Below are positions 8,869 to 37,521 of a stretch of DNA of 64,000 bases, piece after piece. Under the pieces are notes generated by a model. It saw only the letters and a list, made by a program, of their open reading frames with translations. It was not told the DNA's origin and did no database searches. How positions within the stretch are numbered: position 1 is the first letter of the stretch; every line of letters begins with the position of its first letter. This DNA comes from Terriglobia bacterium. GTDB taxonomy: Bacteria > Acidobacteriota > Terriglobia > Bryobacterales > Bryobacteraceae. The stretch is from positions 1-64,000 of the forward strand of contig JAIQFE010000033.1 of the NCBI GenBank assembly GCA_020073445.1, written 5' to 3'. The translations under genes were made by a program, and so were the position numbers.

Positions 8869-10320
8869 TCAGTCGCCGAGCGGTTCGGGAAAGATTCTGG
8901 CGATCGCATCGTCAAAGATGGTCCGCCCGCCGAAACTGGTCGAGGCTCTGAGAAGACGCCTTAGGGCCTCATCTCTGGACAGTCTGCCAAGTTCCACGGC
9001 CGAGAGGATCTCGTCTCGCATATCAACTAATACCGGCTCGATACGTTCGTGTCCCGATGAGCTCAGGTGAACCTCCTTGAAATGGCGACACTCAATGGCG
9101 AATTCATCACGGCAGTATGCGCGCATTCGCTCAGGGAAGTGAAGCGCGCTGCGCAATAGGAGCACCCGTTCCCCCTCCAACTCGCGCTCCAGTAGCTGCG
9201 GGGCAACGAAACTGAGAACATCAACAAGAGACAGGGTAGTGCTGGACTCTCTGACGATTAAATCCGACGGCAAATAGATTCTGATTGGCGAGAAGCTTCC
9301 CGGCCCCCACTCCACAAGGTTCGATTGGGCCCAAAGGAAACGTTCGGCGCCTTCACTCCGGCAGAGCCATGGGAGTCCCGCCATTACGCCACAGGAAAAC
9401 GTGTAGTCGCAATCCGCGAAAACGTCAGCCCATTCTGGTGTTGGCGTCCCACGGAGCTGATGAGCAAGCAGGGCTCGGCCCAGTGCAATGGATTTCGACA
9501 GGACATACCTCCGAATCAGGCTCACCGCGGCATCCGGCAGCTCAAGCCCTGCAGAATGGTCAGGCTGACTAGGCCCTAACACCCACAATGGCGCACGGAG
9601 CATTGATGCAAACACTTCTCTGCGAATCCTCTCCACGAACCGAACGAAGCTTTCACGCGTCTCGCGGTCGTACTCATCGATCGCCTTGCTGTCTATCAGG
9701 CTCTCGAACGCCGCAATCGTTTTGAGAAGAAACGCAGGGAGACGCAGCTCAACCGGAAGGTCGGTCTTGTCGGCCGAACGGGTCTTGAACGGCTTGAAGG
9801 AACTTCGGAGCGCTACTTCATCGAATTCCGTGAAACTGGTCGCACGCAGAATGAGAGCTGGAGTCCCGGCTGCGTGACTGATCGCCGCTGCCACCGGTTC
9901 GTCGCGAATCAGTAGCGAGGTTACTAGATCCGCGACTTGGCTTGGAGTCGCGTTTCGAATGTCCGCGGTCGTTGACGGCAACCCAGGCAGGACGCTGTCG
10001 TCCAGCCGCACCGGAATGATGTAGCGGTCGTCTTCGGCGAGCGATCGCTCCTGTGCTGCCCGTCGTTCTACCCGGTTTGTCCACCTGCTCGATAAATAAG
10101 ACGCAGAGACGAACACCAGGCAGTACCGTGCTTGAGTCAGGTAGACGTCATGCAAGTAGTCGATGAGATTACGACCGATGATGTCCGCCTGCTCGTCCGG
10201 GGCATAGAAGACCGACACTCCGCGGCCTTTGAGAGCGTTTACGACCGCTTCGACATAGTCGCGATCGGGGCTTGCATACGATACCGCCAACGTGAATCGA
10301 GGTCCAACCATTGAAGTCAC
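8869..10320 (-). CDS. TIR-domain protein with a C-terminal domain of unknown function
   Basis: 483 residues. Residues 8-138 form a TIR domain: strand A with SYASPDRDY, then FYAPDE, a long helix, and CLVFVSASYLSSRW, with Glu85 in NRVERRAAQE at the usual catalytic position. TIR domains of this type commonly hydrolyse NAD+ or make ADP-ribose-type signals. The C-terminal 330 residues are soluble, have no recognised motif, and probably form a sensor or regulatory part. The start is GTG 10320, or the ATG three codons later. It stands alone at the left edge of the TIR island. The domain call is firm and the biological role is inferred. Confidence 0.85.
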   Translation of the reverse strand: MTSMVGPRFTLAVSYASPDRDYVEAVVNALKGRGVSVFYAPDEQADIIGRNLIDYLHDVYLTQARYCLVFVSASYLSSRWTNRVERRAAQERSLAEDDRYIIPVRLDDSVLPGLPSTTADIRNATPSQVADLVTSLLIRDEPVAAAISHAAGTPALILRATSFTEFDEVALRSSFKPFKTRSADKTDLPVELRLPAFLLKTIAAFESLIDSKAIDEYDRETRESFVRFVERIRREVFASMLRAPLWVLGPSQPDHSAGLELPDAAVSLIRRYVLSKSIALGRALLAHQLRGTPTPEWADVFADCDYTFSCGVMAGLPWLCRSEGAERFLWAQSNLVEWGPGSFSPIRIYLPSDLIVRESSTTLSLVDVLSFVAPQLLERELEGERVLLLRSALHFPERMRAYCRDEFAIECRHFKEVHLSSSGHERIEPVLVDMRDEILSAVELGRLSRDEALRRLLRASTSFGGRTIFDDAIARIFPEPLGD

Positions 10321-10823
10321 GACGACTAAGGCCAGGTGTCTGTGCTGTCCGCCGAACCGATTTTACCGAAACGCGATATCCGATGCATGTAGTCACTAAA
10401 CGTAGAGCTTTAATCGGTCACTCCGCCGCATAACAGCCTATTCGGAGATTTCCAGAAGTCCCATTCTAGGAAGTTCGCCGGATCGGTCTCGAGAAACACC
10501 GTACACGGAAGCCACATGCGCTGGGAGTCGGCATCTCGGACAAGTGATCCAGAAACCTAGAACTCCATCGGAGGTGCCCGGCGAACTTCCTCCAATCAGA
10601 CTTCTGGGGCGTTTGATGTTGCTAAAAGGATTTATCAACAGCTACGTTGAACATGGGCGAGGATTTCGCCCGACTTAGTGCGTCTTGCATGTCGCCCTCT
10701 GTTGTAAAGGTTCAGGGACATTGATAAGCGGCGTTAACCGTTAAGTGGCTTTACCGTGAGCCGAAAGACCTGCGTCATATCGCGCACTGCGCAATCAACT
10801 CAGTTCCGATTGGAGAAAAAGTT
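10321..10823. other. divergent intergenic region
   Basis: About 500 bases between the divergent TIR gene and the membrane TIR-like gene. A 66-codon - strand frame (10438-10638) contains CPRC but has no second Cys pair and no clear start, so it is not called. The promoters of both flanking genes should be here. None is obvious. Confidence 0.35.
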
Positions 10824-12605
10824 GTGCTGGTCAGCTTAAATGTCATTGGACCTCGGCTTGCACATGATTCCTACCGAGCACACACGGAGATGTACGTCGG
10901 CTTGCCGAACGTTTTTGCGAGGTGCCTTGTGCCAACGGGCGATGGGCGAGGGTCGATGTCAGGAATCCCACTTGAACACCATCGAGGAAGAGCATGGAGG
11001 ATCGCGGGCTTCCTCCTGGTTTCGCTAGCACTCGGTCTAGGTTTTTCTCTTGAGCAACAGAAAGAACAACCGGGATCGGCTGTCTTTTGGCTGGCCGGTT
11101 TGGCATGGAGTTCGTTGGCCGGCGGGGTGGCGTGTTCTAAGCGCGGAAAGAAGCTCCGGCTGATCGGCGCACAGGCGCTGATGGCACAGGACGGGCGTTC
11201 GCCTGTGCTTTACCTGCGCTCGTTCGTTGATGATGCCAAGGAAGCTCGGATCTTGCCGAATCCCCTGATTGGCTTCTTCGGACTATTATTTGTATTTGCC
11301 GAGGCCGTGTTTGGCGCCCTGTCAGAAGAGGAGCAACTTGCCGACGCGGTGGACGAAATTGGGCCGCTTGTGGCGATCGGCAAGCCAGGCGAGAAACTGC
11401 CTGAACTCGGTGCGGCTAGGCTATACGTCAGCGATTCTGAATGGCGTGAGCGCGTCGACCAGTTGATGGCCCGCGCTCAGTTGGTAATTTTGCTTGCGGG
11501 AACAACAGAAGGTTTCTGGTGGGAGCTGAAGCGAACAGCCGATCAGGGAGCCCCTGAAAAGCTCGTTCTTTTGTTTCCCTTCGGAAAGGGAAGATACAGG
11601 AAGTTCTGTGAACGGGCAGAGAGGCTACTGCCCCACAAATTGCCTGAATTCCCGGGCGGTTGGAGATTTCGGAGCCGCTTACGGGCCATTCTGTATTTTG
11701 GACCGGATTGGACACCACACATAGCCCGGCTCAAGGTGGGTTTCTCTATAAATCCTTTGGTGCCTACGCTGAGGAAGGCGCTCCAGCCGATCATCGAACA
11801 GCTTCATATTAGTACGAAACAGGGGTCAAAGCCGGTACGAGGCTACTTGAGCAAGGCCATGGCGACCATCCCGGGTATGCTTGTGGGGATGTTCGGCATG
11901 GGGTTCCTGTTCAGTTTGCTAGTACTCTCCTTTCTGCGGATGGGTAACCCACCCCAAAAGCCGTTCAGCCCGCTCCTTATTGAATCGAGCTCGCAGCCGA
12001 AATCAGCGCTCACCGAGGCACAGGGGCGCTTTATTGAGCAGTCGAAGGCCATCCCGGGACTCGAACAGATCTTCAACTCTGCTGAGCTGAAGAGCATGTC
12101 TAGCGAGGAACAAAACAAGCGCTCGAGCGCTATGGTACAAGAGTTCTCACGTGTGCACCTGCGCTCAGGCCTAAGGCGGCTCGGCGATTCCGCGCTGCTT
12201 ACAAAACTGGATGTCGACCGCAAGCTCTTCGCCCTAGCTGCTCCCGACGTCTGTGCGGCGCTTTCCCACGGTACCATCGCTCCGGAACAAATGGATGCTT
12301 TGCTGGGCCAGCTTGACCGGGCCGAAATCGATCAGTATTTCGACCTCCTTATACAGGCTATTCGCGCTGATGCCGAGGGCACACCCGCGGAGCGTTCGGC
12401 TGATCACGAAGCTGTGAGCCGCTCGTTCGAAGGGATCGCTTCGGGCTTGCCGGAACCAGACGCTGCAAAACTCCGCCAGACCATGTCCAGTTATAGCGTC
12501 GCATCCGATGAAGAGGTTTGCTGGTCTGAACGCGTCCTCCGCACTGGCATTGCGGGCCTCCCCAAACAGGATCAAGTGCTCTGGGCGTTGTCGATCTATC
12601 AGTAA
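10824..12605 (+). CDS. polytopic membrane protein with a TIR-like Rossmannoid core
   Basis: 593 residues. Hydrophobic helices at about 57-75, 85-104, 147-166 and 345-371 surround a soluble core: SPVLYLRSFVDDAKEA (127-141), GPLVAIGKPGEKLPELGAAR (180-199), and QLVILLAGTTEGFWWELKRT (219-238). This order (strand plus RSF-DD, VAIG-PGE, hydrophobic strand, W-E-L helix) belongs to a widespread uncharacterised bacterial membrane family. Glu234 sits where TIR domains carry their catalytic Glu, but this is inference. The C-terminal 200 residues are helical and cytoplasmic. GTG 10824 has GGAG eight bases upstream. The ATG at 10956 (MSGIPLEHHR) is an alternative. Confidence 0.65.
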   Translation: MLVSLNVIGPRLAHDSYRAHTEMYVGLPNVFARCLVPTGDGRGSMSGIPLEHHRGRAWRIAGFLLVSLALGLGFSLEQQKEQPGSAVFWLAGLAWSSLAGGVACSKRGKKLRLIGAQALMAQDGRSPVLYLRSFVDDAKEARILPNPLIGFFGLLFVFAEAVFGALSEEEQLADAVDEIGPLVAIGKPGEKLPELGAARLYVSDSEWRERVDQLMARAQLVILLAGTTEGFWWELKRTADQGAPEKLVLLFPFGKGRYRKFCERAERLLPHKLPEFPGGWRFRSRLRAILYFGPDWTPHIARLKVGFSINPLVPTLRKALQPIIEQLHISTKQGSKPVRGYLSKAMATIPGMLVGMFGMGFLFSLLVLSFLRMGNPPQKPFSPLLIESSSQPKSALTEAQGRFIEQSKAIPGLEQIFNSAELKSMSSEEQNKRSSAMVQEFSRVHLRSGLRRLGDSALLTKLDVDRKLFALAAPDVCAALSHGTIAPEQMDALLGQLDRAEIDQYFDLLIQAIRADAEGTPAERSADHEAVSRSFEGIASGLPEPDAAKLRQTMSSYSVASDEEVCWSERVLRTGIAGLPKQDQVLWALSIYQ

Positions 12606-12831: not shown

Positions 12832-14700
12832 CTAATTGATGCGGTGAGTGTGGAGATCCACCGTGACTGCATCGGTTGGAGCTTGCCCGGGCGAATCGGT
12901 TACGGGCTGGTACTCGATGCGCATCTGTTTTCGATCGACGGTTATTCTCAAAAAGCCGTAATTCGCTTCATCAAGGGCCTCTAATACCGCATCCTGGCCC
13001 TCGAATCGCATCGGCAGAGCGATGGGGTCTCGAATTAGTTTGGCGAGTCCAAAGCCCCCGCCTCCAGCGTTGATGTAGGGGATCTGCATTCCCCCAATCT
13101 CTCGCGTGTATCTTTGATAATCGTGGGCATGCCCAGAGAGAACTGCATGCGGCCAAACGCCTGTCTCCTTCGAGACTTCGTCCAAGTCCGCGAGCAGTCC
13201 GCGGCTGCCCCCATGCTTCGAAGGGGCATAAAGGTTGTGGTGGAGGAGAACAAGTATCGCGCCTTGATACTTCTCGCTCTTTATGCGATTCAGCGCCGCT
13301 CTCAAGAAAGCGAGCTGTCCTTGCCCGACCCCCGGGTACTTCCCGGATTCATCCGAGATTACACCGGGGCCTTCCGATGTGTTGCTGTAAAGCGCTAAGA
13401 TCCGGAGGAATGGGGCGTCGAATGTAAAATACACGCCGGGTTGGATCTGTGGTGTCCTGCCGAGCGTGCCGTCTTGCGAAGCTTTCTCGAAACGTGGGGC
13501 GCAGAAATTCGCAAGAAATGCCTGGAGCGATGTCCCCCCGGTGCCGGGTGCGATCATCCCATCGTGATTGCCGGCAACGGCGAGAATCGGCGCTGGGTAT
13601 TGGCGGTAAGGAAGGTAAAACTGATCGTAGTAGTACATAGCCTCGCCGAAGCTGTAGACCACATCACCCAAATCGAAAAAGAACGATGGTGTTGGGTGGC
13701 CAGTTTCAGTAAAATCCGCGGTCATCCGTTTGGCTACCCGGTCAGGATCGGCTGGGCTGTGTACATTTCCAGTGCTCCCGACTGCGTGGAAAAGGATCTT
13801 CCCTTGCTTCTCAACTGCTTGCACCTGGTCCTTTCCGGCGAGGCCCCACACGTCGGCAAATGATAGTCTCGGTTCGCTTCCACCACGTGATGACGGAAAT
13901 GGCCGAGGCCGCAGTTCGACGGCGCTGTTCGCGAGCTTTTCATAAGCTTCCGCATCTGGTGGATGAGGTACTCGAAACTTCGTTATATCCGGATCGGGTT
14001 GCCCGAATCGCGGGCCATCGCCCTCGCTCGCTTGCGCGGAAGGTGGCGGGGCAGAGCCAGTAGGCAGCAGATGAGGAAGGCCCCAAAGCGCCAAACCGAT
14101 AACCGAGATCGCTGCAATTCCCCAACCGGCGATCAGCAGACGGCGTCGGCGGCGTTCCTGAAGTAAGGCCAGATCATGCCGAATTAATCCCTCAATGCGC
14201 CGCCGCTCCGCCAGGGTCTGACTCTCGCCCATCTGCGGGGCCTCAGCCAACCTTTTTTTCACTACTCCGACGAGGCCAGCCAATTCTTGACGGAATTTTC
14301 CGTCGGAAACGGAGATAGCGTTTCGTTCTCTGAGTGGGTCGATGGACGAAGGCAGATCGGCGGCCAACGGCATCGTGGCGCCTTGTACCAGCACAGGAAT
14401 AACGAGAATCGGTCGATTCAACGCAACAAGAATTTCCAGCCGGACGAAATCATCGGCTTTGAATATTCGTTTGCGCAATCCCTTCCGCACTCCGGCCCAG
14501 CGAGGTCCAATAATCGCCAGAAAGATTGCGCAAGTGCTCAAACGATCGCTGATTGCTTCTACGAAATCTTCCCCAGCGGCAATACCATCGACATCCATGA
14601 AGACCTGATCTTCGCCGAACTGGGCGGTCAGTTGGTCGAAGATTCGGCCGGCGTGCGCTGGAGAGTCTTGACGGCGATAGCTGATAAAAATATTGTTCAA
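12832..14700 (-). CDS. TIR - transmembrane - calcineurin-like metallophosphatase fusion
   Basis: 622 residues from TTG 14700, chosen because GGGAAG lies eight bases upstream and the TIR domain begins at once (MNNIFISYRRQDS). A longer frame to 14859 has no domain. Residues 1-150 are TIR with Glu89 (FVRLEILVA). A basic stretch and one helix (188-211) would anchor it in the membrane. Residues 300-560 form a metallophosphoesterase: FDLGDVV (343-349), VAGNHDG (375-381), LLHHNLY (485-491), GHAHDY (523-528). The first metal motif reads GSTGN (308-312), where GDTG is expected, so one metal ligand appears to be lost. The phosphatase substrate is unknown, and a nucleotide signal is plausible. Confidence 0.85.
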   Translation of the reverse strand: MNNIFISYRRQDSPAHAGRIFDQLTAQFGEDQVFMDVDGIAAGEDFVEAISDRLSTCAIFLAIIGPRWAGVRKGLRKRIFKADDFVRLEILVALNRPILVIPVLVQGATMPLAADLPSSIDPLRERNAISVSDGKFRQELAGLVGVVKKRLAEAPQMGESQTLAERRRIEGLIRHDLALLQERRRRRLLIAGWGIAAISVIGLALWGLPHLLPTGSAPPPSAQASEGDGPRFGQPDPDITKFRVPHPPDAEAYEKLANSAVELRPRPFPSSRGGSEPRLSFADVWGLAGKDQVQAVEKQGKILFHAVGSTGNVHSPADPDRVAKRMTADFTETGHPTPSFFFDLGDVVYSFGEAMYYYDQFYLPYRQYPAPILAVAGNHDGMIAPGTGGTSLQAFLANFCAPRFEKASQDGTLGRTPQIQPGVYFTFDAPFLRILALYSNTSEGPGVISDESGKYPGVGQGQLAFLRAALNRIKSEKYQGAILVLLHHNLYAPSKHGGSRGLLADLDEVSKETGVWPHAVLSGHAHDYQRYTREIGGMQIPYINAGGGGFGLAKLIRDPIALPMRFEGQDAVLEALDEANYGFLRITVDRKQMRIEYQPVTDSPGQAPTDAVTVDLHTHRIN

Positions 14701-15113
14701 GCGAGCTACTTCCCTGCGGTTCTTCCCAAACCTATACACAAAGGCGTTGGGGATTCTCTGCGTGCCGACCATCCGCCCCTTCGCCTCTGTCCAGCTCCTT
14801 TGAGCATGGGCATAGACGCTTATCCCATGGCGCATCCAAGAGCTTGGAGCCGCCAGCACACGTTCTTTCAGAGCCCAGACGGCGGCTCAATTGGACCATT
14901 ATGCAAAAAAAAACCACGGCCGCGGGGTGAAAGCTTGCTTGGAAGAGCGAACCTTCGAAGGGAGGTACTGGCCATACCAAAACGCGAGCCGCGGCTGATT
15001 CGGGACCCGACCGCGTACAACACCAGTGGCGATATCCAGGCAGCGTAACAGCATCTCGCTCACGAATCGACTGTTGATCGCCGTCGTCCTTGAAAAACGA
15101 ATTCTGTAATAAC

Positions 15114-16016
15114 TTATCGGCCACTCACTGTCGCGCGTTCAGCTTGCGCAGCGACCGCTAGCGCCTTAGCCTGCTGCGCAACCTTACCGATCGTTCCCTC
15201 GCGACGCCGCAGCGAGGTCTTGCTTGCGACGTAATCCACCAATTGCAAACAGTTCTCCTCGTTCTCCAAGGACATACTGTGACGCTCGCTCAGCGGCGAT
15301 GGAACATCAGCGTACGTTGCACCCCGTACCAGAACCGGAAACGTCGGAACGTCACGACCCCAGGACGCGCCGAGTTCGCAGAGAACATAATTTGATTCCG
15401 AGGTGTCAGGGCTGAGAACGCCGATAACCAGTTCGGCCCTGGCGATCTCGCTTCGGAGAAGCTCGGACGTCCGCTCTCCCGGCGTGAGCATATAGGGCTG
15501 AACCGACGTACACCGTAGATCGTTCCTCTCGACGTAAAACGCTTGCTCCAGAAGCGCCGCCAGAGCGGCGACGATCGGCTCGTCTCTGTGGCGATGGCTG
15601 ATAAAGATTCGGGGGCTCAGATTAACGTTGTCGCCGATCGCCTTCTCAAGCTCTTCAACCAGCCGCTCCGTGTCGTCCGGCCCCTTCAATCGGAAGCAGT
15701 AGATGTCACTTAGGAAGTCCGGAATGTCCATCTCTCCTGCCAGGACGGGCAGCAGGAGCGTCCCCCGCAACTCCTCCAAAACGCGCCCGGCACCGATCTC
15801 ACCAACAACGTTCTTGGACGCAAGCGCAGCTTCCGTGATCACAACGACGAGAACATCAGCCGTGGAGAGCGCCTTCGTGTACTTGGCCCGCCAGTTCCCA
15901 GCGGCAGCGGTCCCAACCGGGAGTCTGATTTGGTGCCCCTTAGCGCGCAGCCGCGCCTCCAAGTCCTGCGCGATGGCCAAGTCCTTCCAGGCGTGTGATA
16001 AGAAGATATTCGCCAT
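15114..16016 (-). CDS. tandem TIR-TIR protein
   Basis: 300 residues from ATG 16016 (MANIFLSHAWKD), with GAGG six bases upstream. The frame extends to 16244 without domain content. Two TIR domains follow each other: residues 2-130, with Glu73 in VVGEIGAGR, and residues 136-265 (RIFISHRHRDEP), with Glu214 in VLCELGASWG. Both keep the E-[IL]-GA pattern, so both may be catalytic. There is no membrane helix. Two TIR domains in one chain could form the composite active site seen in TIR filaments without needing a partner. The divergent neighbour encodes a deoxyribosyltransferase-like protein. Confidence 0.85.
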   Translation of the reverse strand: MANIFLSHAWKDLAIAQDLEARLRAKGHQIRLPVGTAAAGNWRAKYTKALSTADVLVVVITEAALASKNVVGEIGAGRVLEELRGTLLLPVLAGEMDIPDFLSDIYCFRLKGPDDTERLVEELEKAIGDNVNLSPRIFISHRHRDEPIVAALAALLEQAFYVERNDLRCTSVQPYMLTPGERTSELLRSEIARAELVIGVLSPDTSESNYVLCELGASWGRDVPTFPVLVRGATYADVPSPLSERHSMSLENEENCLQLVDYVASKTSLRRREGTIGKVAQQAKALAVAAQAERATVSGR

Positions 16017-16348
16017 ATTCTGCCTCGCATCAAGAATAGCGCGTTGCGTTTTTTGAAGCGCCTTCCTCATCCACTGGCCGAAAGTCGGAATGTGAGTGTT
16101 GCCGGTGCGCGAATCCTGGCGATAACAGCCCTTCTCACCATTTTTCGCGTGGCCGAAGCTGTTCAGTCGCACGCCTAGGGGGAAGGTTTGGACCGGATCG
16201 TTTCCGAACCTGAACAAGATGCAAGGGGAACTCGCTGGGCGCACCGCGCATTTCGCGAGGGGAAATGGGCCCTGCAGTAAAGATACGTATCATTCGTCTG
16301 TTTGAGCAGCAGCTACCAACCTGCTAAAGTCGCTCCTGAGAGACACCA
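16017..16348. other. divergent intergenic region
   Basis: 330 bases between the tandem TIR gene and the deoxyribosyltransferase-like gene. It contains a perfect 10-bp palindrome, GATACGTATC (16282-16291), a possible binding site. No clear -35/-10 pair was seen. Confidence 0.35.
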
Positions 16349-17433: not shown

Positions 17434-20232
17434 TCACGGGCACGACTTCCGGTAAGGTGGAGTGTCGCCGAATAGCTGTTTCCATTCGCGTTCGTCCAAG
17501 TCGCGATTGGCGATAGCGCACGCCTGCCGCAGCCACACGTCGGGTCGAAGATCCCAAACAATCGCGCTATCGTGGAAGCCGGCGGAACCGAGCCATCGCC
17601 CGTCCGAGCTAAACGCCAGGCTCGACACGAACTCGCCCTCTCTGTAAGCGATCGCCTCGCCCAGGCTCTGGCGTCGCTCGATATCCCAGAACACGATCCG
17701 TACTCCGGCGGCACATGCCAGCATCCTTCCATCCGGGCTGAAGGCAATGGCATAGACGGGGCCGGAGTGACCAGTCAACGCCGGCGGCAGCTCCTGGCCT
17801 GATTGTGTGTCCCACAATCGCACGCTGTCGTCGTAGTCCGCCATGCCCACCGCGCCGGATGCCAGCATTTTGCCGTCCGGACTGAACGCCAGCGCCTGTA
17901 CGGCCATGCGGTGGGCTCTCGCGGCAGGCCAGAGGAGGTGCCGGGAGTTTAGGTCCCAAAGCGCGACTGTGCCGTCGAAACCTCCCGAGGCAAGTCTGCG
18001 GCCGTCAGGACTGAATGCCAGGCCCATGATCGAGTGGTCTTCCGAGACCACGGCGATTGGAAACCGAACCGGTGGCGCCTCTCCGGTGCGCATGATCAGG
18101 ACCGAGCTGTCGCTCCAAACGGTGGAATTTCCGTCAGGACTGAACGCCACGCGTGACACATCATCGTCGGTTCCTCCCAGCTTTTCGGCCTTTGCCGTCC
18201 CGCTGCTCATCTCCCATGCGATGACTCGGTCCTTTGCGGCCGAGAGCAGCTTGCCGCCATCGGCCGTGAAAGCAAGGCTGAGAATGGTATTGGACTGGCC
18301 CTGCAAAGGTGCGCGAATTGGCTGCCCGCGCTCCGGATCCCATAGCGTCACCTTGTTGTTCCCAGACGTAGTAGCCAAAATTCTGCCGTTGGGACTGAAC
18401 GCGATGCTGGAATAACCTTCGGGGGCGCCCTCAAGCGGCCTGCCGAGAACACTCAGGGGATCGGCCGCCCACCGCAGGGCAACATTGTCCCGGCCCAGTG
18501 AGAGCAGTGAACGGCCGTCCGCGCTGAACGCCACCGCAATGGGCGGCTCCCGATGACCCTTGAGTGGATCGCCTGCCGGACGCCGGCTGTCGACATCCCA
18601 GAGCATCACGCTACGGTCCTTCGCCGCCGATGCCAGTGTCTTGCCATCCGGGCTAAACGCGACGCTCAAGCCCCAAGAGTCGTTTCCCAGCGGCCATCCC
18701 TGGTGTCCGGCGAGAGGCGGTCCCATCGCCACGCCAGTTTTGACGTCCCACAGAATCACGGTCCGATCTTCGCTGCCGGAAGCCAGGATACTTCCGTCGG
18801 GAGAGAAGGCAAGTCCGAAAATCTCTGAGTGATGACCTAGCAGCGGCGACCCGATCGGCTGCCCGGTGGCGGTTGCCCATAAAACGATACTACCGTCGTG
18901 AGCCCCGGACGCAAGCACTGTACCATCCGGGCTGAACGCAAGCACGTTCTCCCAACGTTTCGGCCGTAGGGGCGGAACGCGCAAGCGGCGATTTGCCACG
19001 TCCCAAACCAAAATGCCCGCGCTTGATTCGTAGGCGGCGATTCGCTTCCGATCCGAACTGAAACTCAGGTGCGAAGGCGCGCTATCAGAGTACAATCCAT
19101 CTGAAAGGGACCTCTCGACAACTTGAGTCTTGACGTTCCGGATGACCACTTTCCCTGGCTCCCCAGTCGCAAAGACGGCGCCGTCGGCGCTCACGGCAAC
19201 GCTTTCCACTTTCCTGTGTAAGTTTACTTCGCCCAGTGTCGCCAGCGACCTCTCCGTCGCCGCTTCGATGACTACGTTACGGCTATCCTCATCAAGCGCC
19301 ACAACGGTGCGGCCGTCACGACTCAGCACCGCAGTACGCCATGCGTGACGGGGACCGCGTATGAACTGGCGAAGATGGGGGCTATAAAACAGCACTGCCA
19401 AGAGAGCCTTACGTGCCTCAAATGTGGGCTGTGTCCGAAAAGCCTCAACTGCCTCCAGCAGAGCGCTATCTAGGTCGGTAGCCGATTCTCCGACTGCCTG
19501 AGCGGCGAGCTGGCCAGAAAGTGCCGTCATGCGCCGATCCTCGGCCAACTTCCGTTGCTGGTCGGCAATCACGGTCTTCTGCTGTGCAACGTTACGTTGA
19601 CCCGTCGCGTAGACGGCCACCAGCCCGAGCGCCGCCGCCAAGAGAGCAAGTAACACGACCGCCGACCATGCAATTCTCAAGGTTCTGCGATGTTGTCGCA
19701 GGTCTTCGCTATCCAGCTCATCCTTGGGCCGTCCGTGGAGCGGCGCGGCCAGGTCCAAAATGGCATCTCGAAACCTGGCGTCGTGCAGAAATTGCTCTTG
19801 ACGAGCCCAGGACAGGTCGACATAGAACGGCTCCATGCGAAAGGTACCGCGCAACACTTGGGGAAGCGCGTTGGTCTGCAACCAGTCAAATTCACCGGCA
19901 GTAGCATTCCATGCGATTTGCCCGCCAGTAATTACAATCAAAATTTTGTCCGGCGTACGGTTACGCATGAACCAGGCAACTTCCTGATCCACCCATTTCG
20001 ACGCCGCCGCCTGGGGCGACGCCAACAGCAGCAGGTACTCGGACTCGTCTAACGCTTGAACAATTGAGTTCCACAACGCCGGATTTGCGGAGAGACCGGT
20101 CTTATCGCGGAACACCCGGAGGGCATAAGTCTTGTACCACGGACGCGCGAAGCGTTGAAGAGACGATTGAATGCATGCCGCGAGGTCAGCGTCCCCCGCA
20201 TGACTGTAGGAAAGAAAAGCGTTGTAACGCAA
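17434..20232 (-). CDS. TIR - transmembrane - WD40 repeat protein
   Basis: 932 residues. Residues 1-150 form a TIR domain (YNAFLSYSHAGDADL; Glu84 in WVDQEVAWF). One helix (187-209) and a short coiled coil (212-240) lead to a linker and about a dozen WD40 repeats (300-900), recognisable by recurring LAFSPDGxxLASG and VxLWD. The tail reads EREWKQLFGDTP and ends in Cys-Pro. The TIR domain would be cytoplasmic beside the membrane, and the WD40 propeller(s) a sensing or docking platform. Such R-TM-WD40 proteins are typical of bacteria with complex lifestyles and resemble STAND-type proteins without the NTPase. There is no operon partner, and the ATG at 20232 follows a clear gap. Confidence 0.9.
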   Translation of the reverse strand: MRYNAFLSYSHAGDADLAACIQSSLQRFARPWYKTYALRVFRDKTGLSANPALWNSIVQALDESEYLLLLASPQAAASKWVDQEVAWFMRNRTPDKILIVITGGQIAWNATAGEFDWLQTNALPQVLRGTFRMEPFYVDLSWARQEQFLHDARFRDAILDLAAPLHGRPKDELDSEDLRQHRRTLRIAWSAVVLLALLAAALGLVAVYATGQRNVAQQKTVIADQQRKLAEDRRMTALSGQLAAQAVGESATDLDSALLEAVEAFRTQPTFEARKALLAVLFYSPHLRQFIRGPRHAWRTAVLSRDGRTVVALDEDSRNVVIEAATERSLATLGEVNLHRKVESVAVSADGAVFATGEPGKVVIRNVKTQVVERSLSDGLYSDSAPSHLSFSSDRKRIAAYESSAGILVWDVANRRLRVPPLRPKRWENVLAFSPDGTVLASGAHDGSIVLWATATGQPIGSPLLGHHSEIFGLAFSPDGSILASGSEDRTVILWDVKTGVAMGPPLAGHQGWPLGNDSWGLSVAFSPDGKTLASAAKDRSVMLWDVDSRRPAGDPLKGHREPPIAVAFSADGRSLLSLGRDNVALRWAADPLSVLGRPLEGAPEGYSSIAFSPNGRILATTSGNNKVTLWDPERGQPIRAPLQGQSNTILSLAFTADGGKLLSAAKDRVIAWEMSSGTAKAEKLGGTDDDVSRVAFSPDGNSTVWSDSSVLIMRTGEAPPVRFPIAVVSEDHSIMGLAFSPDGRRLASGGFDGTVALWDLNSRHLLWPAARAHRMAVQALAFSPDGKMLASGAVGMADYDDSVRLWDTQSGQELPPALTGHSGPVYAIAFSPDGRMLACAAGVRIVFWDIERRQSLGEAIAYREGEFVSSLAFSSDGRWLGSAGFHDSAIVWDLRPDVWLRQACAIANRDLDEREWKQLFGDTPPYRKSCP

Positions 20233-20358: not shown

Positions 20359-20547
20359 ATGGCGGAAACCAAAAAGAAAACGGAGTCGGTGCCTTTAATG
20401 CTCAAGATGAGCGGGCGCAATCGGGTTATCGAGCGGCTCGCTGCTCCTGCTCCTTCGCGTTTGCTGGACTCGCTCGAGTCGCGATGCCATAGCATGCTTG
20501 AGGCCGTCGAGAGCTTAGGCTCGAATACTGCCGGCCCTTTTCTGTAG
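20359..20547 (+). CDS. small protein with a strong ribosome-binding site, antisense to the EVE-TIR tail
   Basis: 62 residues beginning MAETKKKTESVPLMLKMSGR, with GGAGGT (20350-20355) three bases before the ATG. The protein is basic at the start and helical later (RLLDSLESRCHSMLEAVESL). Its last 33 bases overlap the 3' end of the convergent EVE-TIR gene. It is too small to assign. It lies between two TIR genes, so a regulatory or antitoxin role is conceivable but has no direct support. Confidence 0.4.
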   Translation: MAETKKKTESVPLMLKMSGRNRVIERLAAPAPSRLLDSLESRCHSMLEAVESLGSNTAGPFL

Positions 20548-21438: not shown

Positions 21439-21849
21439 TACTCACTCCATGTCACCATTTTAATTGCAGATGCAATTCTATTTGCGTCTCGCCTCAGGGC
21501 TCAGCAGACCGACTTTCGCGGATAGCTCAGATCGCCTTAGCACTTGCGACGGGAACAAGTCGATTGAGCTAACATGAGCACGGTTGGCGTCAAGTGCCCT
21601 CCTGAGGACGGTGTTAGCGAGAGCCCTTCATCGCAATGACCGACCAATCCCCTTGTGGCGTCATCCGAGCCGAATTGCGTTCCGCGCAGCCCTTCACCAA
21701 ATACCCAACCACATTCTTGGCAATACCTTGGGCAAAGCCGGCCATACGGACGGTTCCAGTTCCCGAATGGGTCAAGCGTGCAGTCTACCGCTGTCAGCAA
21801 CAGCTACGGTTCGCTCGCGGGTTGACGATCCCTTCGGGAAGCCTGTTTT
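21439..21849. other. divergent intergenic region
   Basis: About 410 bases upstream of both the EVE-TIR and DUF4062 genes. An open + frame from 21636 joins the DUF4062 frame but looks non-coding (no domain, irregular composition), and the internal ATG at 21879 has the ribosome-binding site. Confidence 0.4.
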
Positions 21850-29679: not shown

Positions 29680-29690
29680 TTTGATTGAGT

Positions 29691-31457: not shown

Positions 31458-32627
31458 ATGAAACCATTTTTCTTTAGTTATGCACACAACGACGAGCTAG
31501 GCGATGGTTACCTGGATGAATTCTTCGACGAAGTAAATAGGCGCGTGCGCTATCTGACGGGAAGCCGCGAGGACGGCTTCCGCGACACGCAGGCTATACG
31601 TGTCGGTGAACAGTGGTCTGATGAGTTGGTGGATGAACTATCCACCAGCCCTGCCATGGTCTGTCTCTATTCCCCTTCGTATTTTCGGAGCCGGGTCTGC
31701 TCCCAGGAGTTGCAGGTGTTTCTGGAGCGGCGTCAGCAATATATCGACCAAAATCCCGGGAAACGACCTTCAAACATAATTCCGATCTTGTGGCAGCCTG
31801 ACGAGATCCCATGGGCCCTTCCGAGCTTTGAATATGAGAAGCCGCGCTCGCCTGAAATGGAGGGAAGCGGGGTATGGAACGTACGAGAGAGCGAGAATCC
31901 GCGCGAGTTCCGGGTCATCGCACAGTCCGTAGCAGTTCGGGTGAAAGAGGCGTCCCGTGTTCCGCTGCCACGCCTGCGTTACCGCCCCGTGTTGGGCGGC
32001 GTAAATAGCGCCTTCGAGCCTCCTCCGCTGCCCCCGGACGAATTCGATGTGGGCGGTGCGCCTGCCGGTCCACAGTGCGCCACCTTCGTTTATCCACATC
32101 CGCCTGCCTGGAACGCGTGGCCTTTTTCTCCTGACCACAACCCTCTGCTTCACATCTCCGCCGCAGTCGCAAAGGGTCGCGACCTAATATCGCGACAGCT
32201 AACCTTCGACCCGGCAGGCGGCAATCTAGTTCAGCGCCTGAATGCCGCGCGAGAGAAGAACAATCTGACAGTTCTCCTACTAAACGGCGCCGGCTTGAAC
32301 GATCCAGCTCTGATCGCGAGCCTGCAGAAATGCGATAGCGAGAAGTTCGACACGCTCAGCGCGCTGGTGGCGTGGCCCGGTCCTAGGAATTCGACGGGCC
32401 AACGTTTTATGGAGGAAGCCTTCCCATACCTCAGCACCAAACGTGCTCCCTACTTCTATCCAGATCTCGATCAACCGGAAAAGTTTGCAGGGGCTGTAGG
32501 AAACAGTTTAGACGCACTGAAAACTGCTGTTCTTAGGAACCCGCGCGGGGTACCCGCGCTTCCGACGGGAAGCGATTTTTCCGCGCTCCCCTCCGTAACG
32601 GGACCCGGCGGACGAAGGCCCGACTAG
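31458..32627 (+). CDS. FxsC-like TIR protein
   Basis: 389 residues. Residues 1-170 form a TIR domain (MKPFFFSYAHNDE, FRDTQAIRVGEQWSDELVD, AMVCLYSPSYFRSRVCSQEL with Glu84). A Pro-rich linker (190-205) leads to a C-terminal domain (about 210-360: FVYPHPPAWNAWPFSPDHNP, NNLTVLLLNGAG) as in FxsC, the TIR-like protein first noted beside FxSxx-COOH peptide clusters. Its TAG stop shares its G with the GTG of the next gene, so the two are tightly coupled and probably act in one complex. No FxSxx-ending small frame was found nearby. Confidence 0.8.
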   Translation: MKPFFFSYAHNDELGDGYLDEFFDEVNRRVRYLTGSREDGFRDTQAIRVGEQWSDELVDELSTSPAMVCLYSPSYFRSRVCSQELQVFLERRQQYIDQNPGKRPSNIIPILWQPDEIPWALPSFEYEKPRSPEMEGSGVWNVRESENPREFRVIAQSVAVRVKEASRVPLPRLRYRPVLGGVNSAFEPPPLPPDEFDVGGAPAGPQCATFVYPHPPAWNAWPFSPDHNPLLHISAAVAKGRDLISRQLTFDPAGGNLVQRLNAAREKNNLTVLLLNGAGLNDPALIASLQKCDSEKFDTLSALVAWPGPRNSTGQRFMEEAFPYLSTKRAPYFYPDLDQPEKFAGAVGNSLDALKTAVLRNPRGVPALPTGSDFSALPSVTGPGGRRPD

Positions 32628-35137
32628 TGGCTCTCCTTTCCAGCGGAAGAATCATTACGTTCTATTCCTACAAGGGTGGGACAGGGCGTTCGATGGCGCT
32701 TGCGAATGTCGCGTGGGTGCTGGCGAGCAGTGGTGCCCGCGTGCTGGTTGTCGACTGGGACCTGGAAGCTCCCGGGCTCCATCGCTACTTCCGACCATTC
32801 TTGAACGATAAGGAATTGATCCGCGAGGAGTCGGCGGGCTTGATCGATTTCATGACCGATTTCGTCCAGACGATGGCCACCCCCCTCCAGCCCTCGGAAT
32901 CGCGTAAGGAAGATTGGTACGAGAAGCACGCGGATATCAGCAAGTGGACCAAGCGTCTTCTGTGGCCATCCGGCGAAGACGCCAAGACGAGCTTGGGCGG
33001 GTACATCGATTTTGTTCCCGCGGGTCGGCAAGGGCCGGGTTACGCCCGCCGCGTGAATTCGTTCGACTGGGCCGGATTTTATGAGAAGTACAACGGCGGG
33101 GCGTTCCTTGACGCGGTTCGCCGCGCCATGGTGGCGAACTACGACTGGGTGTTGATCGATAGCCGCACCGGAGTCAGCGATACCTCCGGTATCTGCACCA
33201 TTCAACTGCCAGACACGCTGGTGGCCTGTTTCACACTCAACTACCAAAGCATCGACGGCACGGCCGCGGTTGCAAAGTCCGCGGCGACAGGCACGAAACG
33301 AAATCTCCGCATCCTGCCCTTGCCGACACGTTTGGACGGGAATGAGGAGCAGATGCTCAAGGCGATGATGACCTATGCCCGAACGGCGTTCGAGCCCTGT
33401 CTGGAGCCGCACATCGATCGTGACGCCTATTGGCTGGACATGGGCGTGCCGTATTTCTCACGCTACGCCTATTCGGAGAAGCTGGCGCCGTTCGAAGTTC
33501 AAGTAAGCCGCTCGACCTCGACCTTGCCCGCCATGGAGCGATTGGCGAGTCATATTACAGAAGGCCGTGTGACCAGCTTGCAAGCCCTTCCCGAGCCCTA
33601 TCGTGAGCAGACTTTGGCCGAGTTCGAGCAGTTACCCGAAACTGCCCTGCAAGCCACCGAGTCTAAGAAAGTGAATCCGGATCGAGTACTCATGTTCGCC
33701 CGGCGGGGTTGGTATCAGCTTCGGACAAACATGACGCTGGTTTCCTTAGTAGCGGTCTCAGTCGCCGGGTTAGAGATTAGTAAATCAGGCTTAGATTGGT
33801 GGCGACGTTTGTCTTCATCTCCGCAAAACCCAATTTCCACTCTCATCGCCGATGCCCGAAAGGAACTGGAGGCTGGGAGGAACCGCGAACACGGCGCCTT
33901 GTTGATCGCGGAAGCGGCAGCCCGATTGGATCCGGCGAGCGTCGTTGGACCGGGCGGAAGCGCCGACGCGCAACAACTTTATCAGGCGCTCATGGAACTG
34001 CAACCTTTGACGTTGCAGAAATCCCAGAAGGATACGGTTCTCATCCGGCCCGATGGTCTCCGGATGGTAGGAGTTGCCGCCAAACAAGGGGCGTCATTGT
34101 TTCGCCTTCCTCCGCAGGGGAATGACAAGGGCTCTTCGGCCGGTTATTCTGCGGCCGCGTTTAGTCCCGATAATCGATTCCTGGCGGCCGGTGGACGCAA
34201 TGGCAGCTTGCTGGTGATGGACGCGGACTCCGGCCGGCAGGTGTGGCAATGGGAGAATCCAGACCCGAATTCCGCGTGGGTGATTGCCGTGACCTTCAGC
34301 CCCAGTGGAAACCTGCTCGCCGCGGCGACGGATACGGGTGACATTGTAATCTCCGCAGTCGACCCTTGGAAGGAACTGAAGCGGTTTAAGCAGCTTGGCG
34401 TCCGGATTCTCGCCTTCACCCCCGATTCGGCCTACCTTTCCGCTGCCGGTTTCGACACGGTTCACTGGTGGACTCCAAAGAGCGATAAAGCTGTGGAGTC
34501 TTTCCGCCAGCATAAAAAGGGGGTTGTCGCCATGGCTATGTCCCTCATTGAAGACAAGCAACGTAGGATGGTGACCATCGATTACGTGGGGACGGCCAGG
34601 CTCTGGACTCAGACCGCAAATCTTCCTGAGGTAACCAGCATCGCGAATGAGCCAGGTCTCGATCGTCTCGCGTTTTCGCCGGACGGACATCTTCTCGCTG
34701 TCAGCGGCAAGAAGGACACAAAAATCTTTGAGATGACTGACGGCAAGTCGAATCTGAAGACGTCGCTCGCAACGGGCGAGCTGACGGCACTGACATTCAG
34801 CGAGGATGGCCGCTGGCTTCTGACTGGCAGCTTCGTGGGCACAGCGCAAATCTGGGATGTGGCGACATGGCGCCCCCTGCAAAAGGTCGACTTCGCCGCC
34901 GCCGTCGCTTCGCTGGCCCTCACCCCGAATCGAAAATACCTTGCGGTCGCGTCGGGAGATCGAGTTTCGCTCGCGTTGACGCAAGTTACTGGCCTTGATC
35001 AAGGCTTCCCTGCCTCTCAAGTCCGCGGCCTGGCGTGCAGTCAAACGGAGAGGCAGCTCACCCTCGAGGAATGGAAGACATACTTCGGGAACGAGCCGTT
35101 ACGCTACACGTGCGGTCAAACGTCCGCGGCGCATTAG
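32627..35137 (+). CDS. KGGTGR-variant ATPase with C-terminal WD40 repeats
   Basis: 836 residues from GTG 32627. The N-terminal MinD/ParA-like domain (8-330) opens with FYSYKGGTGRSMALANVA, a deviant Walker A with Arg after the last Gly, then VLVVDWDLEAPGLHRYF and WVLIDSRTGVSDTSG. This is the KGGVGR-motif ATPase family known next to FxsC-type TIR proteins. A hydrophobic helix near 370-385 may anchor it, and WD40 repeats occupy about 500-810 (AAFSPDNRFLAAGG, LAFSPDGHLLAVSG, LTFSEDGRWLLTGS). The tail has EEWKTYFGNEP. I infer an NTP-dependent switch that gates the coupled TIR protein when the WD40 part binds a trigger. Confidence 0.85.
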   Translation: MALLSSGRIITFYSYKGGTGRSMALANVAWVLASSGARVLVVDWDLEAPGLHRYFRPFLNDKELIREESAGLIDFMTDFVQTMATPLQPSESRKEDWYEKHADISKWTKRLLWPSGEDAKTSLGGYIDFVPAGRQGPGYARRVNSFDWAGFYEKYNGGAFLDAVRRAMVANYDWVLIDSRTGVSDTSGICTIQLPDTLVACFTLNYQSIDGTAAVAKSAATGTKRNLRILPLPTRLDGNEEQMLKAMMTYARTAFEPCLEPHIDRDAYWLDMGVPYFSRYAYSEKLAPFEVQVSRSTSTLPAMERLASHITEGRVTSLQALPEPYREQTLAEFEQLPETALQATESKKVNPDRVLMFARRGWYQLRTNMTLVSLVAVSVAGLEISKSGLDWWRRLSSSPQNPISTLIADARKELEAGRNREHGALLIAEAAARLDPASVVGPGGSADAQQLYQALMELQPLTLQKSQKDTVLIRPDGLRMVGVAAKQGASLFRLPPQGNDKGSSAGYSAAAFSPDNRFLAAGGRNGSLLVMDADSGRQVWQWENPDPNSAWVIAVTFSPSGNLLAAATDTGDIVISAVDPWKELKRFKQLGVRILAFTPDSAYLSAAGFDTVHWWTPKSDKAVESFRQHKKGVVAMAMSLIEDKQRRMVTIDYVGTARLWTQTANLPEVTSIANEPGLDRLAFSPDGHLLAVSGKKDTKIFEMTDGKSNLKTSLATGELTALTFSEDGRWLLTGSFVGTAQIWDVATWRPLQKVDFAAAVASLALTPNRKYLAVASGDRVSLALTQVTGLDQGFPASQVRGLACSQTERQLTLEEWKTYFGNEPLRYTCGQTSAAH

Positions 35138-35246: not shown

Positions 35247-35804
35247 TCACTCGTTCGCCCCCCCCCGGCTTGTCCTAATCTCCAGAACCGGCAAGCCGCG
35301 ACTTTCCGCCTCGTCTCGGAAAGCATTCGTTAAATCACCCTCGCTGTGGACCAACCCATTCCAAGCGACGACTGCCGTGACCTTTTCATTCATCTCAAGC
35401 GCGATCATCATCGCTTGATCCAGCACGGCGCGGTTGGTTGCCCTGTAGGCGACCGGGTCGCCTTTTGTGTAGCCTAATACGACCAAGTCGCCTCGGCTTT
35501 CAGTTTCGTCAAGAATCTGATCGTATTGCGGACCCCATTCGGCGCTTTGATCCACTACCGATGTTTCGCGAAATATGTGCCGTTCGAACGGAAGCACAAC
35601 ACGACGGCGAATGCCAAGAAGCCCTGCCGCCTCCAGTGCCAGGAGGTCCGCACCACACGCCGCAGAGCTGACTAACACTCGAGCTTTATTCGCCTTGAAG
35701 AGAGCCCGCAATCGCTCACCCACCATACCGACGTTTTCAGCCGGGAAGCCGTGGATCACTGCGTTGGGTGGATCAATTCGCCTACCCGCCAGAGCGATAA
35801 TCAC
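35247..35804 (-). CDS. stand-alone SLOG-family protein
   Basis: 185 residues from GTG 35804, with GAGGAGG four bases upstream. It reads MIIALAGRRIDPPNA, then RVLVSSAACGADLLALEAAG, RRVVLPFERHIF, and LVVLGYTKG, with TAVVAWNG near the end. The GRR-I-D start and the CGAD-L motif are typical of SLOG domains in nucleotide-signalling conflict systems. It should bind a nucleotide or nucleotide-sugar signal. It is convergent with the ATPase-WD40 gene and divergent (67 bases) from the SLOG-SLATT gene, with which it may share control. Confidence 0.7.
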   Translation of the reverse strand: MIIALAGRRIDPPNAVIHGFPAENVGMVGERLRALFKANKARVLVSSAACGADLLALEAAGLLGIRRRVVLPFERHIFRETSVVDQSAEWGPQYDQILDETESRGDLVVLGYTKGDPVAYRATNRAVLDQAMMIALEMNEKVTAVVAWNGLVHSEGDLTNAFRDEAESRGLPVLEIRTSRGGANE

Positions 35805-35871
35805 TCAACCTCCTCGTTCCCACGAAAGCTCACAATTCTTGTACTATTAGATCCGGCAATATATCAAGCCA

Positions 35872-37521
35872 ATGTCTCACACTATTATCGATGTAGATGC
35901 GGCGAAATCGATCGAGGCTACAGTTAAAGAGCTGAATCTTCCCCGGCTCCCGCTCATTATACTGCTGGGCGACTTCGATCCCAATCTCAGCGACCAAGTT
36001 CTTTCCATATGCAGCCGTGTGATTGCTCCAAGTGCGCTCGACCCCGGTGCGCTGGTTCTCGACGATGCTAGATCCTCGGGTTGCGCGGCGCTGATGGGGC
36101 AGGCTGCTCTCGACCAGGACAAGATGCCTCAGCTGCTCGGGATCATCCCGAAAGACAGAGCCGACAGCGATATCGACCCTAATCACGAGGTTGTATTGCG
36201 TTTGCCCGACGTGTGGTCCGATTCACCCAAGTGGACCTTTCAGATTATCGATGAGCTCGCCAAGGATGGAGCCAATCCGACCCCAGTTCTGGCGGTGCTT
36301 TTCGGCGGAAAAGACCCTGAGAAGAAAGCCGTCATTCGCTGTGCGCGGCGTGACTGGCCGGTGCTGGTCATCAGTAAAACAGGCGGGCTTGCCGACCAGA
36401 TTATCAAAGCGAAAACACCACCGACGGATGGCACCGTCCCAACCACGCCGCTGGATCCTGAATTGCGCGAGATCGTCGAAACAGCAACGATCTATCCGGC
36501 GTCGATCGACAGTACCGCGGACGACCTGGCGCGAATCCTGTTAGGGCGGATTGACGCTCACCCAGAGACCCTCGCTGCCACGCTCAAGGAAGTTTGGTCG
36601 CGGCTCGACGAGCTCGACAGGGCGGCGATGCTGCGACAGAAGCGGTTCCGGAGAATTGAGCTGGCGCTCATTATTCTTGCTGTCCTGGCGGCTTTGTTCG
36701 CCATCCTAACAGTGACGAACGTAATTCCGGTGGCGTTTGTGACTTTTCTTCACGAGTGGTACGTTCCAGTTGGCACGCTGCATTTTCTCGTCGTATTGAC
36801 ACCCATCGCCATCTCGATCCTAAGCGCCTACAACAGCCACTTTCGCGATGGAACGAAATGGATTCTCCTCCGGGGGGCCGCTGAAGCCCTGAAGCGCGAA
36901 GTGTTTCGCTTTCGATCGCGAGCCGGAGCATATAGCGACGAGCAGTGTTTGCTGAACTCTCGCGAATCGAAATTGGCCGCGAGAGTCAAAGATATTACTT
37001 CGTCCCTAGAGCAGAGCGAGGTCAACAAGATCAATATAGATAAGCTTCCGCCGAACGACGATTCGCGGGAGAGTTTCTTGACGCCTGACGAGTATGTCGA
37101 CAATCGTATTCACGACCAAGTCAGTTACTTCGTCAAGAAAACTCGTGCCCTATCAAGGCAGCTCTCGTGGATGCAGGCGTTTATCTACGTCGTCGGTGGA
37201 ACTGGAACCCTCCTGGCGGCGTTTCACAAAGACCCCTGGGTAGCGCTGGCCACAGCCGTTGTCACTGCGATCACGACTAAGCTTCAAGCAGATCAGGTTG
37301 AAACGTCGTTGGTCCAGTACAATCAGGCGCTGACAAGCTTAAGGAACATCGATGCGTGGTGGAAGGCCCTGTCTCGCTGGGAAAAGATGCGACGAAAGAA
37401 CATCGATTTGCTCGTGGATCAAACTGAAAAAACCCTAGAATCTGAAACCGCCGGATGGGTGCAGCAAATGCAATCTGCGCTTGACAAGCTGACGGAGAAG
37501 GAACCAGCTAAGACCAGTTAG
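35872..37521 (+). CDS. SLOG (LSDAT)-SLATT predicted signal-gated membrane effector
   Basis: 549 residues. Residues 20-230 form an LSDAT-type SLOG domain, as in TRPM channels: LPLIILLGDFDPN, DDARSSGCAALMGQAALDQD, MPQLLGIIP and PTPVLAVLFGG. Residues 262-330 contain two membrane helices, followed by RGAAEALKREVFRFRSRAGA, the SLATT signature. A second pair of helices (about 432-472, MQAFIYVVGGTGTLLAAF and VALATAVVTAITT) leads to a helical tail. SLATT domains are predicted pore-forming effectors controlled by nucleotide signals. Binding of a TIR-made signal to SLOG could open the pore and kill or arrest the cell. No partner enzyme is in the same operon. Confidence 0.8.
   Translation: MSHTIIDVDAAKSIEATVKELNLPRLPLIILLGDFDPNLSDQVLSICSRVIAPSALDPGALVLDDARSSGCAALMGQAALDQDKMPQLLGIIPKDRADSDIDPNHEVVLRLPDVWSDSPKWTFQIIDELAKDGANPTPVLAVLFGGKDPEKKAVIRCARRDWPVLVISKTGGLADQIIKAKTPPTDGTVPTTPLDPELREIVETATIYPASIDSTADDLARILLGRIDAHPETLAATLKEVWSRLDELDRAAMLRQKRFRRIELALIILAVLAALFAILTVTNVIPVAFVTFLHEWYVPVGTLHFLVVLTPIAISILSAYNSHFRDGTKWILLRGAAEALKREVFRFRSRAGAYSDEQCLLNSRESKLAARVKDITSSLEQSEVNKINIDKLPPNDDSRESFLTPDEYVDNRIHDQVSYFVKKTRALSRQLSWMQAFIYVVGGTGTLLAAFHKDPWVALATAVVTAITTKLQADQVETSLVQYNQALTSLRNIDAWWKALSRWEKMRRKNIDLLVDQTEKTLESETAGWVQQMQSALDKLTEKEPAKTS

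What the first reader, a model, noticed from the sequence alone, without database searches (positions are those of the whole stretch)
8869..37521. Dense island of TIR, TIR-like and SLOG proteins with almost no shared architecture
Within 29 kb I see six TIR proteins (TIR-unknown, TIR-TM-phosphatase, TIR-TIR, TIR-TM-WD40, EVE-TIR, TIR-short domain), an FxsC-like TIR protein, a DUF4062 protein, two deoxyribosyltransferase-like proteins, a TIR-like membrane protein, three SLOG domains and a SLATT protein. TIR domains are known NADases or makers of cyclic ADP-ribose-type signals, SLOG domains read such signals, and SLATT domains are predicted pores. No canonical Thoeris ThsA was found. That so many combinations sit together suggests a multi-sensor NAD-based defence or cell-death network.
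Basis: partly seen in the sequence, partly recalled or inferred. Interest (0 to 1): 0.85.

Follow-up and report, generated by a model that had tools for sequence, protein, structure and literature searches.

The report
Bacterial immune island with TRPM-like pore
A soil acidobacterium carries, beside a tRNA gene fragment where mobile DNA inserts, a pile of predicted NAD-cutting TIR immune genes and a membrane protein whose sensor half looks like that of the human TRPM2 channel, which suggests (untested) that bacteria link TIR signals to a self-destruct membrane pore.

The parts
8869..10320 (-). A: TIR plus about 350 aa of unknown C-terminus
   Evidence: Pfam TIR_2 5e-17
10824..12605 (+).
   Evidence: no Pfam, PADLOC or NCBIfam hit; 7 of 200 family genomes including own
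12832..14859 (-). C: TIR-TM-metallophosphoesterase (TM by eye)
   Evidence: TIR_2 3.7e-10, Metallophos 1.1e-4
15114..16244 (-). D: tandem TIR-TIR
   Evidence: TIR_2 2e-28, two stretches; relative in G079 64-85% at contig ends
16349..17020 (+). E: nucleoside deoxyribosyltransferase-like (NDT/DRHyd)
   Evidence: PF05014 8.7e-5, under cut-off
17434..20232 (-). F: TIR-TM-WD40 (TM by eye)
   Evidence: WD40 8e-72; TIR_2 4.7e-8
20515..21438 (-). G: EVE-like-TIR
   Evidence: TIR_2 3.5e-21; EVE 0.0088, under cut-off
21636..23054 (+).
   Evidence: no Pfam hit at E<=10
23374..24417 (+). I: SLOG-like N-terminus (by eye) plus NDT-like C-terminus
   Evidence: PF05014 2e-4, under cut-off; 2 full-length homologues in 200 family genomes
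24546..25310 (+). J: ThsB-like TIR
   Evidence: PADLOC ThsB 4e-18
31458..32627 (+). O: FxsC-like TIR, first gene of the O-P pair
   Evidence: NF040588 2.6e-27, under its cut-off; pair kept in 4 of 4 family loci examined
32627..35137 (+). P: KGGVGR-variant ATPase-WD40, overlaps O by 1 base
   Evidence: NF047398 1.5e-44, over cut-off
35247..35804 (-). P2: single-domain SLOG, divergent from Q
35872..37521 (+). Q: TRPM-type SLOG (LSDAT)-DUF4231-SLATT_1 membrane protein
37827..37877 (+). 51-nt tRNA-Phe 3' fragment, attachment-site remnant
   Evidence: intact tRNA-Phe at C26:15482-15557
37944..39056 (-). R: Xer-type integrase of the tRNA-Phe site
   Evidence: Pfam 2.9e-31; 69-71% relatives at the intact tRNA-Phe of 3 genus-mates

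Best explanation
The region is a mobile-DNA accretion next to a tRNA-Phe integration site. It holds several independent NAD-signalling immune units, most of them single genes, not one network. At least one part, 31458-37521, looks like a TIR/SLOG/membrane-effector module. Proposed order: P (KGGVGR ATPase-WD40) and O (FxsC-like TIR) sense infection, and O cleaves NAD into an ADP-ribose-type product. The product binds the TRPM-type SLOG of Q, and Q's DUF4231/SLATT membrane helices then open or disrupt the inner membrane, giving abortive infection. P2 is a regulator, second sensor or signal trimmer of the same step. Shown here: the domains and folds, the O-P and P2-Q pairings, the P2-TIR linkage, the catalytic-Glu column, the attachment site. 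Inferred: catalysis, the ligand, the pore, the defence role, and that O-P talks to P2-Q (I saw the four genes together in the window only).
Against: No biochemistry. The four genes O-P-P2-Q are together only in the window; P2-Q pairs elsewhere (L057, L068) have no TIR in the stretch searched, so the signal might come from elsewhere or P2 itself may be the partner. L134 has Q with neither TIR nor P2 within 6 kb. The membrane half of Q is poorly modelled (mean pLDDT 66, much of it under 60), so a pore is not shown. Only 13 of 200 family genomes have a P2 match and 9 of 200 a Q match, own included, some to the SLATT half alone. ADP-ribose-contacting residues of TRPM2 were not compared with Q.
Confidence: 0.5

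Rival explanations
1. A pure pile-up: unrelated single-gene TIR effectors and P2-Q collected at an integration hotspot, each acting alone, with no signalling between neighbours.
For: Mixed orientations and one-gene units; pairs tested other than O-P, P2-Q and L-K not seen kept; Gabija-like genes and another integrase beside the intact tRNA-Phe on C26; no TIR in 15 stretches read at tRNA-Phe sites of genus-mates.
Against: O-P and P2-Q are kept across genera; P2-TIR linkage far above chance; a similar set recurs on a Rhizobium plasmid.
Confidence: 0.3
2. P2 is the signal maker and the TIRs are not its source: P2 and Q form a two-gene system (two SLOGs), P2 making or hydrolysing a nucleotide that gates Q, with TIR as an alternative partner.
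For: P2 and Q divergent and without TIR in L057 and L068; SLOG-fold proteins include nucleotide-processing enzymes (recalled); P2 domain fused to cyclase domains in L092 and L094.
Against: P2 is fused to TIR in L099 and L100 and to NDT in L101, which fits a reader of their products; its closest folds by Z are YpsA and the DNA-binding DprA.
Confidence: 0.15
3. Not immunity: secretion or lipid metabolism genes (L, M, DNase II-like N, outer-membrane K, efflux pumps) define the region, and TIRs are passengers.
For: L-K is a kept pair in G170 and G063; K resembles Omp85-family proteins, under cut-off.
Against: 14 of the 18 genes A-Q plus P2 lie outside the K-N block, which has TIR genes J and O on its two sides.
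Confidence: 0.05

Closest known systems
Thoeris type I (ThsB TIR + ThsA SIR2-SLOG)
   Same: TIR signal read by a SLOG domain of an effector (PMC12948488 and PMC11204291, passages)
   Different: effector half is SLATT/DUF4231 membrane helices, not SIR2; the SLOG is the TRPM type; no SIR2 seen in the island scans (lists for F and P cut at 25 families)
Thoeris with TM-macro ThsA (type II)
   Same: TIR-made nucleotide drives a membrane effector (PMC11204291 abstract and passages)
   Different: no macro domain seen in the island scans (same limit); the sensor is SLOG
TIR plus 2TM SLATT gene neighbourhoods
   Same: TIR beside a predicted ADPr-derivative-regulated SLATT effector in Firmicute phages (PMC9503650, passage); SLATT with nucleotide-related effectors such as TIR in GTPase-centric systems (PMC7159879, passage)
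   Different: Q carries its own TRPM-type SLOG and is paired with P2; bacterial island; no relative confirmed in viral contigs or found in phages
TRPM2 channel
   Same: N-terminal MHR1/2 SLOG; in zebrafish TRPM2 this part is reported to bind ADPR (PMC13143021, passage)
   Different: no TRP channel domain by Pfam; membrane part is DUF4231/SLATT
FxsC / KGGVGR systems; PADLOC candidate PDC-M28
   Same: O matches FxsC N-terminus, P matches KGGVGR ATPase and PDC-M28B at 5.8e-22
   Different: O is under the FxsC cut-off and matches no PADLOC model at E<=0.01; the C-terminus of P is WD40 here and varies elsewhere

Membership tests
Thoeris | TIR protein ThsB | tested here: met
   J matches PADLOC ThsB 4e-18; 7 TIR genes
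Thoeris | ThsA effector with SIR2-SLOG or TM-macro | tested here: not met
   no SIR2 or macro hit shown for the 17 island proteins A-Q at E<=0.01 (for F and P only the best 25 of 50 and 35 families are shown) or for P2; the rest of the genome was not searched
Thoeris | TIR makes a signal that activates the partner | not testable with these tools
   no assay
SLOG-SLATT conflict effector (LSDAT-SLATT) | SLOG of the TRPM/LSDAT type fused to SLATT | tested here: met
   PF18171 6e-18, PF18181 1e-18 in one protein
TRPM channel | MHR1/2 N-terminal SLOG | tested here: met
TRPM channel | TRP ion-channel domain | tested here: not met
   Pfam gives SLATT_1, SLATT_3, DUF4231 and LSDAT_prok, no channel family
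SLOG superfamily (P2) | SLOG/DprA-like Rossmann fold | tested here: met
TIR NADase | catalytic Glu | tested here: met
   Glu in the aligned column of 8 of 8 domains; which column is catalytic is recalled
TIR NADase | NAD cleavage | not testable with these tools
   no assay
FxsABC system | FxsC at its curated cut-off | tested here: not met
   95.9 bits against 130
tRNA-borne genomic island | tRNA 3' fragment plus integrase | tested here: met
   51-nt tRNA-Phe fragment 66 nt from R; R relatives at the intact tRNA-Phe in 3 genus-mates
tRNA-borne genomic island | both ends defined | tested here: inconclusive
   left end not found; the window starts at the contig end

The most novel reading that the evidence does not exclude
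A class of bacterial immunity built like TRPM2 signalling: TIR or deoxyribohydrolase-type enzymes make an ADP-ribose-type messenger, a TRPM-type SLOG reads it, and a SLATT membrane effector kills the cell. P2, a SLOG family without a model in Pfam, NCBIfam or PADLOC, is the common adaptor that links such generators to interchangeable membrane attackers (SLATT pore, patatin, phospholipase C), at times beside a peptidoglycan hydrolase (GH108, GH19) as in a holin-endolysin pair.
Probability: 0.3. Interest if true: 0.82.

Novelty: new variant of a known kind. Interest (0 to 1): 0.62.

Why it matters
If true, the ADP-ribose-reading half of a human ion channel has a bacterial counterpart wired to TIR immunity, and the question of what SLATT effectors respond to becomes testable with two to four genes. 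P2 gives a handle, independent of TIR, for finding further NAD-signalling systems that the defence models used here do not cover. The Rhizobium plasmid suggests that dense TIR-SLOG-phospholipase islands travel.

Tried and rejected
Integron-like repeats between genes: the repeat finder gave the WD40 repeats of F, short two- or three-copy matches, one 30-nt inverted pair in the A-B gap, and one 34-nt pair (74%) shared by the A-B and E-F gaps; no repeat marks the gene boundaries in general. I-J as a Thoeris-like pair: rejected; 2 full-length I homologues in 200 genomes, neither beside a J-type TIR; one has a C-type TIR about 3 kb away. L and K as TIR effectors: rejected for this clade; the pair stands without TIR in L105 and L106, while another PLC clade is near TIR-FGE in L075 and L107. 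B as a TIR partner: no TIR in 5 of 5 loci. Integrase of C26 as a close relative of R: only short matches, best 23 residues at E 0.001. Viral scans for Q and P2: no relative confirmed; phage records for Q: none. Solved structures by sequence: P2 no convincing hit; Q with 3 sequences none, with 6 sequences TRPM. NDT neighbours: 2 of 6 loci (G067, G108) have an adjoining TIR gene.

Literature: listings and passages only; no paper was read whole. Searches: SLATT+SLOG+TIR, Thoeris types, Acidobacteria+TIR domain+defense island, 0 papers, TIR+SLATT, 7 papers, TPR-S/TIR/SLOG, uncharacterized immune components, KGGVGR/FxsC, nothing relevant in the 10 of 21 papers listed, TRPM2/SLOG/TIR domain (100), Thoeris+SLATT, 4 papers. 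Passages seen: PMC12948488, PMC7159879, PMC9503650, PMC8195603, PMC13143021, PMC9122126, PMC11204291. The 2015 SLOG/SLATT paper and the 2020 TPR-S paper are recalled; the latter is not held.

Rows dropped or limited: the neighbour tables keep the longest of overlapping ORFs, so a gene can be hidden; the profile counts used every ORF of 100 or 80 aa and more. Loci that match only the SLATT half of Q (L050-L053, seen wider as L061 and L064) are not counted as Q loci. Of the 11 other Q loci, L059, L060, L069 and L070 lie at contig ends, and L059 and L069 may be two halves of one gene. TIR calls in fetched loci come from a local profile made from 8 window domains, which missed one annotated TIR in L112, so counts are low rather than high. 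L068 is among the 23 P2 loci because it was found with Q. The phylum search used E<=1e-10.

Full report
What is there. The window is contig C64:1-64000 of a 6.58 Mb draft genome. Two relatives with Q (G020, G067) have contigs of the same lengths as two named Bryobacterales records, so the family appears to be of that order. Within 8869-37521, Pfam finds TIR in seven genes (A, C, D twice, F, G, J, O), two deoxyribosyltransferase-like genes (E and the C-terminus of I, both under cut-off), a LSDAT-DUF4231-SLATT protein (Q), a phosphoesterase of the phospholipase C type (L), a Tle1-like hydrolase (M) and a DNase II-like protein (N). Of 17 TIR_2 hits in the genome, 8 lie here. H has no Pfam hit even at E 10, so DUF4062 is not confirmed; B has no TIR hit; the SLOG call for the N-terminus of I rests on sight. 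All eight TIR domains keep Glu in the catalytic column.

Where it sits. A 51-nt copy of the tRNA-Phe 3' end lies at 37827-37877, 66 nt from integrase R. The intact tRNA-Phe is on C26, next to MATE and MnmE-like chromosomal genes (named by eye), with a different integrase and Gabija-like genes on its 3' side. Further 3' fragments lie on C102 and C19. Relatives of R (69-71%) stand beside the intact tRNA-Phe in G119, G139 and G497, and no TIR was found in 15 stretches at tRNA-Phe or fragment sites of genus-mates, several of them short. Q, P2, O and B have no match in 11 of 11 genus-mates searched. This is most simply acquired DNA at an integration hotspot; the fragment sits between the TIR block (left) and R (right), and the left end of the block is not known.

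Which pairs recur. O-P: the four best other O homologues (27 of 200 genomes have a match, own included) all have a KGGVGR ATPase within 10 bases on the same strand (L080-L083); the C-terminus of P varies (WD40 in the window, TM in G148, TIR-NTPase-TPR in G131 by eye and profile, FGE in Rhizobium). P2-Q: among 11 other Q loci (four at contig ends) P2 is divergent and adjacent in G050 and an Acidobacteriales bin and decayed in G166; TIR lies within 5 kb in G020, a Hymenobacter bin and a Chlorohelix plasmid; an NDT/TPR-S gene lies beside Q in an Acidobacteriaceae bin; a WD40 gene is upstream in G067 (L059); L069, L070 and L134 show none of these. P2: of 23 other P2 loci, 12 have TIR within 5 kb or in the same protein (fusions in L099 and L100), 2 have SLATT adjacent and a third is decayed, 1 is fused to NDT. 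The family holds 0.74 TIR_2 hits per Mb, so about 0.8% of loci would have one by chance; at the density of the richest genome 2.8%. The 23 are every hit plus L068; they mix family members with distant fused relatives from the phylum, whose own TIR density was not measured. Controls: PLC homologues 1 of 9, B homologues 0 of 5. Not seen kept: I-J, B with TIR, D (one relative, cut by contig ends). A, C, F, G, H, J, M and N were not searched for by themselves in other genomes.

A second island. On the conjugative plasmid pRlX4 of Rhizobium beringeri, found with O in the plasmid collection (1 of 4 records with a match), 26.6 kb hold eight genes that match the local TIR profile: a TIR-WD40 gene, an F-like TIR, a WD40 protein with a weak TIR match, the TIR of an O-P pair, a TIR gene overlapping an LD_cluster2 SLOG gene, a long F-like gene and two small TIR genes; also a patatin and a phage-type lysozyme (the long F-like gene and the last small one were not scanned with Pfam). 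A Sinorhizobium plasmid has three annotated TIR genes, one of which holds the KGGVGR match; three other KGGVGR plasmid loci viewed, of 19 records with a match, have no annotated TIR.

Module swapping. One TIR-TM-FGE gene family (53-64% identical) stands beside Q in G020, in a same-strand run with P2, a patatin and a phospholipase C homologue in G087, and beside a phospholipase C homologue in G035. P2 domains also occur with TPR-S, trypsin, NDT and cyclase domains. A GH108 peptidoglycan hydrolase is near Q in 3 loci (L067, L071, L134) and a GH19 near P2 in L072. These point to membrane and wall attack as output.

Mechanism. I propose TIR (O, aided by P) to an ADP-ribose-type messenger to Q's TRPM-type SLOG to SLATT membrane damage, with P2 tuning the step. 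Fold, pairing and linkage are shown; catalysis, ligand, pore and defence are inferred. The other TIR genes (A, C, D, F, G, J) are best read as stand-alone units.

What is known. SLATT was predicted to be an ADPr-derivative-regulated membrane effector and seen beside phage TIR genes (PMC9503650, passage) and in GTPase-centric systems with TIR and similar domains (PMC7159879, passage). Thoeris uses TIR with SIR2-SLOG or TM-macro effectors (PMC11204291, PMC12948488, passages). I did not find, in the searches named in Tried and rejected, a report of TRPM-type SLOG-SLATT with TIR, or of P2. Those searches cover open-licence papers only and I saw listings and passages, so this is weak evidence of novelty.

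Noticed in passing
window 25755-28513: K-L: outer-membrane protein and phospholipase C-type gene overlap by 4 bases; the same pair, without TIR, is in G170 (same genus) and G063.
   Followed up: yes
window 28564-31028: Tle1-like hydrolase (PF09994) and DNase II-like protein (PF03265) between TIR genes; partners not searched.
   Followed up: no
window 41838-54763: Two RND efflux sets (ACR_tran, HlyD, OEP) right of the integrase.
   Followed up: no
L006 (C75), L007 (C41): Two further contigs of the genome with several TIR genes; C75 also has a recombinase (by eye).
   Followed up: partly
L011 7587-15418: Gabija-like GajA/GajB and an integrase beside the intact tRNA-Phe on C26.
   Followed up: partly
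L138 15094-41660: Dense TIR-SLOG-patatin-lysozyme island on an unannotated stretch of Rhizobium plasmid pRlX4.
   Followed up: partly
L092 7730-9325, L094 1577-3748: P2-type SLOG fused to a nucleotide cyclase domain (PF00211), with a TIR gene next door.
   Followed up: no
L067, L071, L134: GH108 peptidoglycan hydrolase near the Q homologue, as in a holin-endolysin pair.
   Followed up: partly
L129 6331-7294, L130 8323-9288: Small TIR and small NDT-like gene side by side on the same strand in G067 and G108.
   Followed up: partly
   Followed up: no
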